Assembly (NCBI GenBank): GCA_028871815.1
Contig: JAGWMJ010000009.1
Coordinates: 1-64,000 of the forward strand
Source of the DNA: Armatimonadota bacterium
Lineage (GTDB): Bacteria; Armatimonadota; Chthonomonadetes; Chthonomonadales; Chthonomonadaceae
DNA: 64,000 nucleotides
Reading direction: 5' to 3'
Shown here: positions 554 to 33,613 of the stretch, one piece after another
How positions within the stretch are numbered: position 1 is the first letter of the stretch
Layout: each line of letters opens with the position of its first letter
Program-made: the position numbers and the translations under genes
Notes under the pieces: generated by a model
The model's input: only the letters and a program-made list of their open reading frames with translations
The model's database searches: none
Told to the model about the DNA's origin: nothing

Positions 554-1492
554 ATGAGCACCGCTGGCCGGCCAATTCTGGTGATCGGCAGCGCAAATAT
601 GGACCTCAGCGTCTGTGCGGCCGCAATTCCCGGCCCAGGAGAGACGGTACTTGGCGCCAACTTTGCAGCCTCACCGGGCGGTAAAGGCGCCAATCAGGCT
701 GCGGCGGCTGGCCGGTTAGGCGGCGATGTCCGATTTGCCGGGCGTGTCGGCAGCGACCCGTTTGGGGCTCAACTCCGAGTGAGCTTGGAGGAGTCGGGCG
801 TCGATTGCCGGCTGCTCGACGTTGCGCGAGACGTGGCCACGGGCGTGGCCCTGATCACCGTGAGTAACTCCGGTGAAAACGCCATCACAGTGGCTGCCGG
901 TGCGAATGGATGCATGGATGAGGCCGCCGTAGCGCTGCTGGCTGACGAGATACTCGACTGCGGCCTGCTGTTGATGCAGCTCGAGATTCCGCTGGCCGCC
1001 GTTCGGGCCGCCGCCGGGCTTCCGCGTAGAACCGGCAGTCGGTTCATCCTCAATCCTGCGCCCTACAACGCCGGGATCGAACTCGAGTGGTTGAGCGGCG
1101 TGAGCCTTATCACACCGAACGAGCATGAAGCTGCCGCGCTCCTTAAGTGCAAGCCGGCCGATATCCTGCGGGATCCCGGCGCTGCTGCAGCCGAGCTGCG
1201 CAGACTGGTAGCGGATGCTGCGATAATCACACTGGGGTCGCTGGGATACGCCATTGCCGGACCTAATGGCGTACACCTTGGTCCGGGCATGGTCACAAAC
1301 GAGGTAGACACCACCGCAGCCGGCGACTGCTTCAATGGCGCACTGGCTGTGGCTCTGAGCGAAGGCGCTGAGCTTTACGAAGCCGCACACTGGGCGAACG
1401 AAGTGGCTGCAATCTCCGTGACGCGGCACGGCGCACAGGCCTCCCTGCCATGGCGGTCAGAGGCGCCTGTGCTTGTCCGAAGGGCTAATTGA
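554..1492 (+). CDS. rbsK: Ribokinase (PfkB family)
   Basis: Predicted 312-residue ribokinase, which phosphorylates D-ribose at O5 with ATP so that it enters the pentose phosphate pathway. The substrate-binding motif GGKGANQ is at about residues 42-48. The C-terminal anion-hole/catalytic motif DTTAAGDCF starts at about residue 252, with Asp258 as the likely base. Length is normal for the family. A longer frame opens at a TTG at 533, but ATG 554 is preceded by GGAGGAGA at 543-550 and starts just before the first beta-strand, so 554 is preferred. It follows the porin fragment closely and precedes the Fic-like and MocA-like genes. Other PfkB sugar kinases are possible, but these motifs fit ribokinase best. 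Confidence 0.85.
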   Translation: MSTAGRPILVIGSANMDLSVCAAAIPGPGETVLGANFAASPGGKGANQAAAAGRLGGDVRFAGRVGSDPFGAQLRVSLEESGVDCRLLDVARDVATGVALITVSNSGENAITVAAGANGCMDEAAVALLADEILDCGLLLMQLEIPLAAVRAAAGLPRRTGSRFILNPAPYNAGIELEWLSGVSLITPNEHEAAALLKCKPADILRDPGAAAAELRRLVADAAIITLGSLGYAIAGPNGVHLGPGMVTNEVDTTAAGDCFNGALAVALSEGAELYEAAHWANEVAAISVTRHGAQASLPWRSEAPVLVRRAN

Positions 1493-1565
1493 CACCGCGG
1501 CTCCCGGTTGGGTAACCTCAGCGTAAATCGGGCAGACCGGCCCAGGTTCGGTCCGCAGGAGATTC

Positions 1566-2042
1566 GTGACGCACGCGGCAAACACAACCCAGCAGATCGT
1601 GTACCTTACCACACACGATATCACGTGGATCAACACGACCGTAACGGGCAGGCCGAACCATTTTGACTGGGTGAAACTGGAGGCCGCGATGGCGGCGCAG
1701 TACCAGTATGGCGAGACCCGCGATATTGTCGACCAGGCTGCCGGACTGCTCAACGCCCTTCTGCTCCAGCCGCCATGGCGGGTCGGACGGCGGCGGACGG
1801 CGCTTATAGCCATCACGACGTTTCTAACCGCTAACGGCGTTCAATGGACCGCTACGCCGGAGATTCTCGCAAGCCGCGTTGCCGGAGTCGCGAGCCACCA
1901 ATTGGGTGCGCGACAGGCTTTGTCCCAGATACTGGAAGGCGGCACCTTTGGCCCGCCGCCGGACGAGTCGTTGCGGCAGGTGATTGCGGACCAGTGTGCG
2001 GCGCTGGCAGATAGTCTGATCTCGCTGGCGGAGGGAGATTGA
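1566..2042 (+). CDS. Fic/Doc-like protein with a lost catalytic motif
   Basis: A 158-residue protein starting at GTG 1566 after AGGAG. The middle resembles the Fic/DOC fold: YLTTHDITWIN, then KLEAAMAAQYQYGE, then a helix AAGLLNALLL leading into PPWRVGRRRTALIAITTFL, then ANG. In active Fic/Doc proteins the segment before TA reads HPFxDGNKR. Here it reads PPWRVGRRR, so the catalytic His, the acidic residue and the Asn are missing and only Gly and Arg remain. AMPylation or Doc-type kinase activity is therefore unlikely; it may be a structural or binding relic. Its stop overlaps the TTG start of the next gene (ATTGA), which suggests translational coupling. Assigned from pattern similarity only. 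Confidence 0.55.
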   Translation: MTHAANTTQQIVYLTTHDITWINTTVTGRPNHFDWVKLEAAMAAQYQYGETRDIVDQAAGLLNALLLQPPWRVGRRRTALIAITTFLTANGVQWTATPEILASRVAGVASHQLGARQALSQILEGGTFGPPPDESLRQVIADQCAALADSLISLAEGD

Positions 2043-3034
2043 CCGGAATCCCTGCGACCCGCGCACACGAACTACGAGTTGCCGTTACCGGAGCCGATGA
2101 TGCCATCCTTCACCACATCGGCCTATGGCAGCGCATACCCGGTGTGCACGTCGCAGCATTCTGCGACGCCGACCGTGAGCGGTTGCTGCAAGCCGTAGAT
2201 CTGGCGCCCGGCGCGGCCGCATTTACCTCTAACGAAAGCCTTCTTACTTCCGGACTGTTCTCGGCACTCGATATTTGCGCACCGACCGCCGAGTACACGG
2301 CGCTGGTGGAAACAGCCCTGGCGGCCGGTTTCGATGTGCTTTGCCGCGCGCCCGTGTCAGGCGACCAGGCAGCCGCGCGCGCTTTCGCGGCCGTGACGCT
2401 TCGGGAGGGTCAGGTCTTCCTTCCCGTGCCGTCGTTGCGGTTTCACCCTGCTATCGCGTTTCTACGCGACATGGTCGAGAACGATGATCTCGGCGGAGCG
2501 CTGCACATCCAGGTCAGCGTTTCCGCGGAACAAACGCCTGCAATCGGCGAGTCGCTGGATGCGGCAGCGATCGCAGGCATCGATCTCTTTGCGTGGCTGA
2601 CAGGCCATATAGGGAGCGCCCGATCGGCAATTGGGGCCGCATCGGGATTCCCGGACGCGGCGGCGATTGCGATCACGTCATGTCACGGAGCAGTCGGATC
2701 GATCCTGGCCACGTGCGGTCGACCCATGGCCGGCACCTCGGTAGCCGTATCCGGAAGTGCGGGCGCTGCCGATGCTGTTGTGGGTACGGGTCTTGTGCGA
2801 TTCCGTACCGCAGAGTCGCCGGTATGGCTGACGCATGACGCTGGGGTTGGCGACCCGGATGAGGCGGCGATCCGTCACTTCGCGGCTTGCATCCACAGCC
2901 ATTCGCAGCCACTTTGCACCGCGCGAGATGCTGCCACCGCGGCCGCTGTCTGGGCCGCAGTTTGTGCGCGACCCGTTGCGAGTGGCGGCTGGACCACGCT
3001 GCCCGACGGGTACAATAGTGCTAGCTACCGTTGA
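2039..3034 (+). CDS. Gfo/Idh/MocA-like protein, degenerate
   Basis: A 331-residue protein starting at TTG 2039, which overlaps the previous stop and is preceded by GGAGGGA. The order of elements follows the Gfo/Idh/MocA oxidoreductases: first strand LRVAVTG, second strand HVAAFCDADRERL with an acidic end, ALDICAPTAEYTALVETAL, then FDVLCRAPVS and a FLPVPSLRFHPAIAFLRDMV stretch. Two key features are changed: the glycine-rich GxGxxG loop reads TGADDAILHHIG, and the EKP motif that carries the catalytic Lys reads CRAP. NAD(P)-dependent oxidoreductase activity is therefore doubtful. It may act as a binding partner of the preceding Fic-like protein or be an evolving paralogue. Confidence 0.6.
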   Translation: MTGIPATRAHELRVAVTGADDAILHHIGLWQRIPGVHVAAFCDADRERLLQAVDLAPGAAAFTSNESLLTSGLFSALDICAPTAEYTALVETALAAGFDVLCRAPVSGDQAAARAFAAVTLREGQVFLPVPSLRFHPAIAFLRDMVENDDLGGALHIQVSVSAEQTPAIGESLDAAAIAGIDLFAWLTGHIGSARSAIGAASGFPDAAAIAITSCHGAVGSILATCGRPMAGTSVAVSGSAGAADAVVGTGLVRFRTAESPVWLTHDAGVGDPDEAAIRHFAACIHSHSQPLCTARDAATAAAVWAAVCARPVASGGWTTLPDGYNSASYR

Positions 3035-3174
3035 GGTAGATACGCACCCGTGGTAACCCAGATTCCTGTTTTTGATCCGACCCCAATCCCGCATTCGAGC
3101 CGGCAGCATAGGGCGCGGTTGCCATTGGTTGACGCGTTCACAGCGGGACATGGACGAGAAGGAGCGATTTTGAG

Positions 3175-5841
<2,667 letters not shown>

Positions 5842-32614: not shown

Positions 32615-33613
32615 ATGGGCGAATCGACGGCTTCCGTTGCCGTAATCGGGTGCGGATACTGGGGCAAGAACCTCGTTAGAAACTTCGCCGAGATGGGCGT
32701 GCTGTCAGCCGTGTGTGATACCACGGAAGCCGGACGCACGACGGCCCGTGCGATCGCACCGGACGCTGCGATCTACGACAGTACCGAGGAGCTGCTTGCC
32801 AGCGGCGTACAGGCCGTAGCGATTGCTACGCCGGCTGAGACTCATACGGCCACGGTGCGGGCAGCGCTATCTGCCGGCAAAGACGTATTCGTTGAGAAGC
32901 CGCTTGCCCTGAGCCGCGCCGACGGCGAGAGGCTGGTAGAGCAGGCGCACCAGGCCGGGCGAATTCTCATGGTCGGGCACGTGCTGGAGTACCACCCCGG
33001 CATCCGGCGACTGGTGGAGCTGGCTCAAACCGGGGCATTGGGCCGCCTCCAGTACGTCTACTCCAACCGGCTGAGTTTGGGCAAAATCCGTCGGGAAGAA
33101 AACATCCTGTGGAGCTTTGCGCCACACGACGTAGCCGTCATCCTCAGGCTGGTCGGCGGGCTTCCGGTCGAGGTATCGGCAGCCGGCGGTTCCTGGGTAA
33201 CTGCCGGCATCGCTGACGTTACGGTGACGAATTTGCGGTTTGCCAATGGTGTGCGCGGGCATATTCACGTAAGCTGGCTTCATCCATTCAAGGAGCAGCG
33301 GTTGGTGGTCATCGGCGATGCCGCGATGGCAACCTTTGATGACGTGGGTAAGAAACTGGTTGTCTATGACCAGCACGTGAGCCTTGACGAGGGAGTGCCG
33401 TTGCCTCACAAGGGTGAAGCTCACGAGGAGCAGTATCCTGACAAAGAGCCGCTCCGGCTGGAGTGCGAGGCATTCGTCCACGCCGTGCTGACCCGTAACC
33501 CACCGCTCACCGATGGCGTCAGCGGCGTGCGCGTACTCGCGGTGCTGGAAGCCGCCCAGGCATCGCTGACTGCCATGGGCCAACCCAAATCTGTTCCGGC
33601 ATACGGCGTGTAG
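32615..33613 (+). CDS. Gfo/Idh/MocA oxidoreductase, WbpB/WlbA-like
   Basis: A 332-residue dehydrogenase. [17 protein letters not shown] (residues 8-24) is the Rossmann loop, and [10 protein letters not shown] holds the catalytic Lys95. [17 protein letters not shown] carries the conserved His. WbpB/WlbA oxidises C3 of UDP-GlcNAc-uronic acid, giving the 3-keto sugar that an aminotransferase then uses. The next two genes encode just such an acetyltransferase and aminotransferase, so the call is strengthened by context. ATG 32615 follows GGGAGG. It is the first gene of a three-gene operon with 17-base gaps. Confidence 0.9.

What the first reader, a model, noticed from the sequence alone, without database searches (positions are those of the whole stretch)
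1566..3034. Two coupled genes for a Fic-like and a MocA-like protein, both catalytically disarmed
The gene at 1566 looks like Fic/Doc but has PPWRVGRRR where active proteins have HPFxDGNKR. The overlapping gene at 2039 looks like Gfo/Idh/MocA but has lost the glycine loop and the EKP lysine. Finding both degenerate yet open, coupled by ATTGA and with good ribosome-binding sites, suggests they are kept for a non-catalytic, possibly joint, role next to a ribokinase.
Basis: partly seen in the sequence, partly recalled or inferred. Interest (0 to 1): 0.55.

Follow-up and report, generated by a model that had tools for sequence, protein, structure and literature searches.

The report
Dead Doc toxin paired with dead dehydrogenase
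In a poorly studied group of bacteria, a relative of a known bacterial toxin has lost its active site yet is kept as a one-copy gene in several families, and in one order it often travels with a second protein that is losing its own active site, which suggests the two are kept for binding rather than for chemistry.

Summary
The gene at 1566-2042 is a Doc-type Fic-fold protein without the catalytic histidine. The gene at 2039-3034 is a Gfo/Idh/MocA-fold protein without the glycine loop, EKP lysine or Asp/His pair. Predicted structures match P1 Doc (Z 14.9) and NAD-binding oxidoreductases (Z 32.8).

This is not local decay. A profile of the Doc-like protein finds exactly one strong match in each of 132 of 291 genomes of the phylum. 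In the 89 examined, the histidine is present in 6, while the P, F, G and N of the motif are kept in 82-87. The gene tree follows the families (8 changes, minimum 7). Pairs of relatives show dN/dS 0.06-0.18.

The MocA gene sits directly downstream in 15 of 25 Doc-bearing genomes of the window's order, and in 0 of 64 loci of other families. The partners form one clade with stepwise erosion: the deepest is intact, and the lysine is left in 3 of 14, against 16 of 16 unpaired relatives.

Most likely this is a domesticated, non-catalytic Doc with a co-translated partner that became non-catalytic. A physical complex is inferred, not shown. The ribokinase link is not general. The target is unknown.

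The parts
1566..2042 (+). Doc-like Fic-fold protein without the catalytic histidine (158 aa, GTG start)
   Evidence: NCBIfam DOC_P1, PHROG 577, AlphaFold pLDDT 91.6, P1 Doc Z 14.9
1770..1796 (+). degenerate FIC loop PPWRVGRRR (residues 69-77)
   Evidence: catalytic His position is Pro; the F and N positions, kept in 82 and 83 of 89 family members, are W and R here
1971..2030 (+). C-terminal helices beyond the Doc core (residues 136-155), lying where class III Fic proteins carry their inhibitory helix (inferred from alignment)
   Evidence: four Neisseria Fic rows align to model residue 152-153, two rows of variants altered in that helix (3se5, 3sn9) stop at 128 and 132; Arg137 in 73 of 89 rows
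2039..2042 (+). overlap of the start codon TTG and the stop codon TGA (translational coupling, inferred)
2039..3034 (+). Gfo/Idh/MocA-fold protein without catalytic residues (331 aa, TTG start)
2090..2107 (+). lost nucleotide-binding glycine loop: GADDAI (residues 18-23)
2345..2353 (+). lost EKP motif: RAP (residues 103-105)
554..1492 (+). ribokinase-like gene upstream (context; as neighbour shared only with G005 among the loci compared)
3175..5841 (+). pyruvate phosphate dikinase downstream (context; not a neighbour in the other loci compared)

Best explanation
The first gene is a domesticated Doc. An ancestral Doc-type protein became a one-copy, vertically inherited gene in several families of the phylum, lost its catalytic histidine and mostly the last arginine of its motif, and kept the Fic fold (shown by sequence, tree and model), presumably as a binding module (inferred). 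Two C-terminal helices beyond the Doc core lie where Phd or an inhibitory helix would sit, so the old active-site groove is probably covered in cis (inferred from structure alignment). In the order of the window a MocA-type dehydrogenase gene became linked directly downstream, while still intact, and then lost its catalytic residues step by step while the pair stayed together (inferred from tree and alignment). The proteins are probably co-translated and most likely bind each other (inferred): the MocA-fold protein serves as a scaffold or ligand-sensing subunit, perhaps of a sugar nucleotide or NAD as in its enzyme relatives, and the Doc-fold protein docks the complex on a cellular target (target unknown). 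No toxin or redox chemistry is expected from the window's copies.
For: Both folds predicted with confidence and matched to Doc and to MocA dehydrogenases. One strong profile match (E <= 1.1e-20) in each of 132 of 291 phylum genomes, never two (my count from its match list). Among 89 of these 132, catalytic His in 6 and motif Arg in 25, against P 87, F 82, G 84, N 83. Doc tree needs 8 family changes, minimum 7. MocA gene directly downstream on the same strand in 15 of 25 Doc-bearing genomes of the order, over 10 genera; among these paired loci the other neighbour clusters of three or more loci hold a fixed place only within one genus (clusters 12, 15, 22). Paired MocA proteins form one clade (89/90): Lys in 3 of 14, Asp in 1, His in 6, glycine loop in 7; unpaired relatives Lys 16 of 16, His 16 of 16, Asp 13 of 16. 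dN/dS 0.09-0.18 (Doc, 8 pairs) and 0.06-0.12 (MocA, 5 of 7 pairs; 2 saturated). In Chthonomonas calidirosea even the histidine, tryptophan and purine genes are dispersed (PMC4959169, passages), so a kept neighbour is telling.
Against: No binding data and no model of the complex. 10 of 25 Doc-bearing genomes of the order lack the adjacent partner, so it is dispensable. The deepest paired MocA (G018) is still catalytically intact, so joint function need not be non-catalytic there. The window's own copies evolve fast (Doc branch 1.53, MocA 1.86), though two control genes of this genome are also about twofold fast. 6 of 8 Doc dS values and all MocA dS values exceed 1, and no pair involves the window. 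3 of the 132 strong Doc matches (G105, G111, G113) contain a stop codon, apparently at the far C-terminus by the frames. Foldseek itself gave Doc only E 1.2e-3, none at or below 0.001. The placement of the C-terminal helices rests on Z about 8, which for helical folds may be only a common arrangement. PHROG and NCBIfam scores for the window's Doc are modest.
Confidence: 0.5

Rival explanations
1. The two genes are neighbours for shared expression only: each protein has its own non-catalytic role and they never bind.
For: The Doc-like gene stands without an adjacent MocA gene in 10 of 25 genomes of the order and in 64 of 64 loci of other families. The linkage type varies: 4-base or 1-base overlaps, gaps of 6, 12 and 35 bases.
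Against: Linkage kept through 10 genera while other neighbours changed, and erosion of the MocA active site in the linked clade but not in the 16 unpaired relatives compared.
Confidence: 0.2
2. One or both proteins are still enzymes with changed chemistry, for example nucleotide binding and transfer without the histidine.
For: G and N of the motif loop are kept in 84 and 83 of 89 family members. Degenerate Fic2 of Campylobacter fetus is still toxic (PMC5651007, abstract and passages). A Doc clade with Gln for His is described (PMC4454073, passages). G018's MocA is intact.
Against: The position of the base varies freely (R 32, K 17, A 11, Q 8, H 6, P 5, S 3, others 7 among 89), which argues against a new catalytic residue. 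The window's copy also lost N and F. The window's MocA lost glycine loop, Lys, Asp and His together.
Confidence: 0.13
3. The pair is decaying in the window's lineage and will be lost.
For: Long branches for both window proteins; loss of motif residues that most family members keep; the sister lineage G005 has no MocA gene next to the Doc-like gene.
Against: Both frames are open with ribosome-binding sites, folds are predicted intact (pLDDT 91.6 and 81.7), and the acceleration is shared by two control genes of the genome.
Confidence: 0.12
4. The Doc-like protein is an antidote: it competes with active Doc or Fic toxins for their target or binds them.
For: Fic-Fic neutralisation exists in Campylobacter fetus (PMC5651007, abstract and passages). 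The window's genome has two further Fic-family genes over Pfam's cut-off (their motifs were not examined).
Against: The gene tree follows the families and strong matches are one per genome, unlike patchy toxins. No toxin gene was noticed as a recurrent neighbour, but neighbours were not annotated systematically.
Confidence: 0.05

Closest known systems
P1 Doc (Phd-Doc toxin-antitoxin system; 3k33, 3dd7, 3kh2)
   Same: Same fold over residues 11-127 (Z 14.9, 116 aligned); profile of the family finds Doc chains at E 4.9e-9 (9vzc) and 2.7e-6 (3k33)
   Different: No catalytic His, no Phd gene next to it, two extra C-terminal helices, one strong match per genome and a tree that follows the families
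Doc clade D2 with Gln for His (Khater and Mohanty 2015, PMC4454073, passages seen)
   Same: A Doc clade in which the catalytic histidine is replaced
   Different: D2 has a fixed Gln and keeps [D/E][G/V]NKR; here the position varies and the last Arg is mostly lost. Whether D2 overlaps this family was not tested
Campylobacter fetus Fic2 (PMC5651007, abstract and passages seen)
   Same: A Fic protein with a degenerate motif (R195A and a Gly to Thr) that still has an effect in the cell and contacts a partner protein
   Different: Toxin-antitoxin setting; its partner is another Fic protein
AvrB (Kinch 2009, PMC2686095, passages seen)
   Same: Fic-like fold without the motif histidine, binding a target peptide
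   Different: A secreted effector with an inserted domain; no similarity to it was tested here
Gfo/Idh/MocA dehydrogenases such as 5uhw and GnnA (7bvj)
   Same: Two-domain fold (5uhw: Z 32.8, 310 aligned)
   Different: Glycine loop, EKP Lys, Asp and His all lost in the window's protein
Yeast Gal80-Gal3 regulatory module (PMC7556753, passages seen; Gal80's kinship to Gfo/Idh/MocA is recalled)
   Same: Works-like analogy: a MocA-fold non-enzyme binding a kinase relative that lost activity
   Different: Different kinase fold, eukaryotic, transcriptional; analogy only, no membership claimed

Membership tests
Fic/Doc (Fido) superfamily | Doc/Fic helical fold | tested here: met
   model; five best Foldseek rows are P1 Doc (E 1.2e-3 to 1.9e-3); Z 14.9 over 116 residues
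Fic/Doc (Fido) superfamily | sequence profile match | tested here: met
   PHROG 577 E 5.5e-10; TIGR01550 E 1.9e-7 but under its cut-off; no Pfam match for the window protein; of ten relatives five pass the TIGR01550 cut-off and four the Pfam Fic cut-off
active Doc/Fic enzymes | HPFxxGNxR with catalytic His | tested here: not met
   PPWRVGRRR; His in 6 of 89, complete motif in 2 of 89 (L086, L087)
active Doc/Fic enzymes | phosphotransfer or AMP transfer activity | not testable with these tools
   needs biochemistry
Phd-Doc toxin-antitoxin system | adjacent antitoxin gene | tested here: not met
   only 73 bases between the upstream gene and the Doc start; no small upstream gene recurs at a fixed place across families among 68 clustered loci (ORFs of 60 aa or more, clusters of three or more loci)
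class III Fic proteins | C-terminal inhibitory helix with (S/T)xxxE(G/N) | tested here: inconclusive
   helices in place by alignment, but the motif occurs in the last 45 residues of only 3 of 89
Gfo/Idh/MocA | Rossmann domain profile and two-domain fold | tested here: met
   33.6 bits over cut-off 24
Gfo/Idh/MocA | glycine loop, EKP lysine, Asp/His pair (their roles are recalled) | tested here: not met
   row L031: GADDAI, CRAP, A and A
Gfo/Idh/MocA | NAD(P)-dependent activity | not testable with these tools
   needs biochemistry

The most novel reading that the evidence does not exclude
A toxin-derived Doc fold was domesticated before the split of several families of the phylum into a non-catalytic core regulator. 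In one order it recruited a sugar dehydrogenase as a partner and turned it into a second pseudoenzyme, and in two further lineages it is joined instead to a second, more degenerate Doc copy (fused, or as the adjacent gene). That is a bacterial counterpart of the Gal80-Gal3 type of regulatory complex made of two dead enzymes.
Probability: 0.35. Interest if true: 0.75.

Novelty: new variant of a known kind. Interest (0 to 1): 0.58.

Why it matters
Toxins of toxin-antitoxin systems are usually mobile and patchy. Here a Doc-type fold without its catalytic residue has become a one-copy gene in most sampled members of several families, so a function other than poisoning must hold it there. The linked dehydrogenase shows the loss of catalysis step by step in living genera, from an intact active site (G018) to complete loss (the window), so one can ask directly when and why an enzyme becomes a binding partner.

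Tried and rejected
Toxin-antitoxin module: rejected for lack of an antitoxin gene and of the motif. Defence system: PADLOC gives no family for either window protein; relative L061 gives five weak candidate-system matches through its Fic region (E 1.5e-6 to 2.2e-3) and L129 none. Phage origin: the scan of viral contigs found no relative (7 stretches, 0 confirmed). Ribokinase or PPDK as functional partner: in tblastn of 34 neighbourhood loci ribokinase appears in one (L061) and PPDK in none. Natural fusion of the two genes: none noticed among the fetched loci; long open frames in G104, G148 and G159 look like non-coding read-through by eye. A read-through of a relative's gene pair, meant for folding to look at an interface, was aligned but not folded because the alignment placed the single MocA rows on the Doc half. 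Promoter and terminator scan of 1400-3250: one promoter-like site on the other strand, no terminator. phmmer hits of the Doc-like protein to armadillo repeats and an oxidoreductase were judged chance; P1 Doc is in the same list at E 0.02-0.08. Literature: 'Armatimonadetes'+'Fic' (1 paper, unrelated by its listing), 'Armatimonadota'+'Doc'+'toxin' (2, unrelated by their listing), 'Fic domain'+'catalytic histidine'+'pseudoenzyme' (0). Related searches gave the Fic papers cited. The library is open-licence only. Presence outside the phylum was tested only by one pattern-based scan of genome contigs (14 loci, one of them a Phycisphaerae contig with a 41-residue match) and is therefore open.

Full report
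1. What is in the window. Two genes on the + strand, 1566-2042 (158 aa, GTG start) and 2039-3034 (331 aa, TTG start), overlap by the four bases of a TTG/TGA junction. Each has a purine-rich ribosome-binding site 4 nt before its start (read). Upstream is a ribokinase-like gene (554-1492; best model TIGR02152, 295.8 bits, just under its cut-off of 299.65) and downstream a pyruvate phosphate dikinase (3175-5841).

2. The first protein is a Doc. It matches PHROG 577 'Doc-like toxin' (E 5.5e-10) and NCBIfam DOC_P1 (E 1.9e-7, under the cut-off), and no Pfam family. Its AlphaFold model has pLDDT 91.6 and pTM 0.88. The five best Foldseek rows are P1 Doc (E 1.2e-3 to 1.9e-3; nothing reached 0.001), with Z 14.9 over 116 residues in the second look. 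A 29-row profile of the family (A1) finds four PDB sequences at E <= 0.01, all Doc (best E 4.9e-9). The motif reads PPWRVGRRR instead of HPFxxGNxR.

3. The dead motif belongs to the family, not only to the window. Searching 291 genomes of the phylum with A1 gives matches at E <= 1e-6 in 169. In 132 of the 291 there is a strong match (E <= 1.1e-20), one in each and never two (counted by me from its match list); three of these (G105, G111, G113) contain a stop codon, apparently near the C-terminal end (frames). By family label they are f1 16, f2 1, f3 8, f6 10, f14 73, f28 7, f29 16 and f30 1. The remaining 37 genomes have only weaker matches, which may be ordinary Doc or Fic proteins. Family f1 is Chthonomonadaceae (Armatimonadota): named contigs have the same lengths as the unnamed ones. 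I fetched the gene from 89 of the 132 genomes (30 of the 73 in f14) and aligned one main domain per genome; the separate paralog in L080, the distant Doc in L089 and the second domain of two-domain proteins were dropped. The catalytic His is present in 6 of 89 and the last motif Arg in 25 of 89. The other residues of the loop are kept: P 87, F 82, G 84, N 83. A complete HPFxxGNxR occurs in 2 of 89 (L086, L087, one genus); their neighbours are a NUDIX-like and a purC-like gene by eye, and no antitoxin-like gene was seen. The window's copy is the only one with W at the F position and R at the N position.

4. Inheritance and constraint. The tree of the 89 proteins needs 8 changes of family label, where 7 is the minimum and shuffled labels need 52.5 on average; f1, f3 and f14 taken alone are not single clades in it, and 31 of 86 inner branches are open. 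dN/dS of relatives with more than 60% identity is 0.093-0.177 for the Doc-like gene (8 pairs) and 0.062-0.121 for the MocA-like gene (5 of 7 pairs, 2 saturated). Most dS values exceed 1 and no pair involves the window. The window's Doc has a long branch (1.53, against 0.20 in its sister G005). Control genes of the same genome are also fast by three-point estimates: PPDK 0.25-0.26 against 0.10-0.11, FMT 0.43-0.46 against 0.20-0.24, Doc 0.63-0.75 against 0.24-0.36. The excess is therefore largely genome-wide.

5. The second protein is a MocA-fold non-enzyme. The Pfam match is 33.6 bits over a cut-off of 24; the model has pLDDT 81.7 and pTM 0.81; the best structural match is an NAD-bound oxidoreductase, 5uhw, Z 32.8 over 310 residues. 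Glycine loop, EKP lysine, Asp and His are all replaced.

6. The linkage. The MocA-like gene lies directly downstream on the same strand in 15 of the 25 Doc-bearing genomes of f1-f3, spread over 10 genera (G015's copy is cut by the contig end), and in 0 of the 64 loci fetched from f6, f14, f28, f29 and f30 (one of them, L131, has a MocA-like gene about 6 kb away). In clustering of the five genes on either side in 68 loci, listing clusters of three or more loci, the other neighbours of paired loci hold a fixed place only within one genus. Elsewhere recurrent neighbours are mostly confined to one family (f6; f28; f29; three f3 loci), except a two-gene block shared by f28 loci and one f14 locus (clusters 14, 31). 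The kept pair is notable because C. calidirosea does not even keep histidine, tryptophan or purine genes together (PMC4959169, passages). The ribokinase is a neighbour only here and in G005.

7. Stepwise erosion. In a tree of 30 MocA proteins the 14 full-length paired ones lie on one side of a branch (support 89/90, 85% of bootstrap trees). The deepest, from G018, has GCGGIG, EKP, Asp and His intact. G030 lost Lys and Asp. The g4 genus keeps the loop and Lys but has Glu and Asn at the Asp and His positions. The others lost the Lys and Asp, and some the loop or His too; the window lost all. Totals for paired: Lys 3 of 14, Asp 1, His 6, loop 7. Totals for unpaired relatives: Lys 16 of 16, His 16 of 16, Asp 13 of 16. 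The unpaired rows were those whose loci one search returned, chosen by similarity to the window protein, plus the window's second MocA; the partial paired copy L053 was left out. The window's row and L043 are long branches that meet, so their mutual placement is unsafe.

8. How it may work. P1 Doc lacks helices of the Fic core that its antitoxin Phd supplies (PMC2686095, passages). The Doc-like protein has two helices after the Doc core (136-146, 148-155). In the second-look alignment four Neisseria Fic rows (5cgl, 2g03, 3s6a, 3zlm) align to model residue 152-153, while two variants altered in the inhibitory helix (3se5, 3sn9) stop at 128 and 132. So the family may have built an antitoxin-like helix into itself. 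The inhibitory sequence motif is not conserved there (3 of 89 in the last 45 residues), and Z near 8 is modest. Arg137 in this helix is kept in 73 of 89. I infer a binding module whose groove is covered in cis. The partner is probably co-translated and bound, and may keep a ligand pocket without chemistry.

9. A second theme. In the 16 f29 genomes with a strong match the open frame is 369-488 aa and holds an extra, more degenerate Doc copy in front (one match, G186, has a stop codon inside), and in G017 (f2) that copy is the adjacent upstream gene; no other of the 291 genomes matched this copy over its length. Profile comparison of the two copies gives probability 98.8 and E 9.5e-17. The dead Doc is thus joined to a second Doc in two lineages and to a MocA in others, as expected of a module that works in complexes. 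Whether the second copy arose once or twice was not tested.

10. What is known. His-less Doc (clade D2, Gln) and degenerate Fic proteins are described (PMC4454073, PMC5651007; passages seen). A one-copy vertically inherited dead Doc, and its pairing with a dying dehydrogenase, turned up in none of my three literature searches on it, which cover open-licence papers only. The nearest works-like case is Gal80-Gal3 (PMC7556753, passages; Gal80's kinship with MocA is recalled).

Noticed in passing
L129:5793-7031, L080:8162-8974 and other f29 loci: Tandem Doc: an extra, more degenerate Doc copy is fused in front of the main one in f29 (open frames 369-488 aa) and is a separate adjacent gene in G017 (f2).
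   Followed up: yes
L086:7980-8549 and L087:1072-1524: One genus (g14) keeps a complete HPFPYGNRR motif inside the otherwise dead family, next to NUDIX-like and purC-like genes, with no antitoxin-like gene seen.
   Followed up: partly
L207 and L208 (G000:C1:344318-344635 and 533444-533704): The window's own genome carries two further Fic-family genes over the Pfam cut-off (71.6 and 46.9 bits); their motifs were not examined.
   Followed up: no
L090-L092 (G026, G023, G022): Genus g16 has a MocA close to the paired clade with intact EKP, Asp and His but only a weak (G022, G026) or no (G023) Doc-family match in the genome.
   Followed up: partly
32702-33331: A second Gfo/Idh/MocA gene of the window, with EKP intact; distant from the paired clade.
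   Followed up: partly
47-523: C-terminal part of a porin-like beta-barrel protein (Pfam Porin_O_P, 26.2 bits) cut by the window's start.
   Followed up: no
L176: A Phycisphaerae contig with a 41-residue match to the family, the only hit outside the phylum in the genome scan.
   Followed up: no
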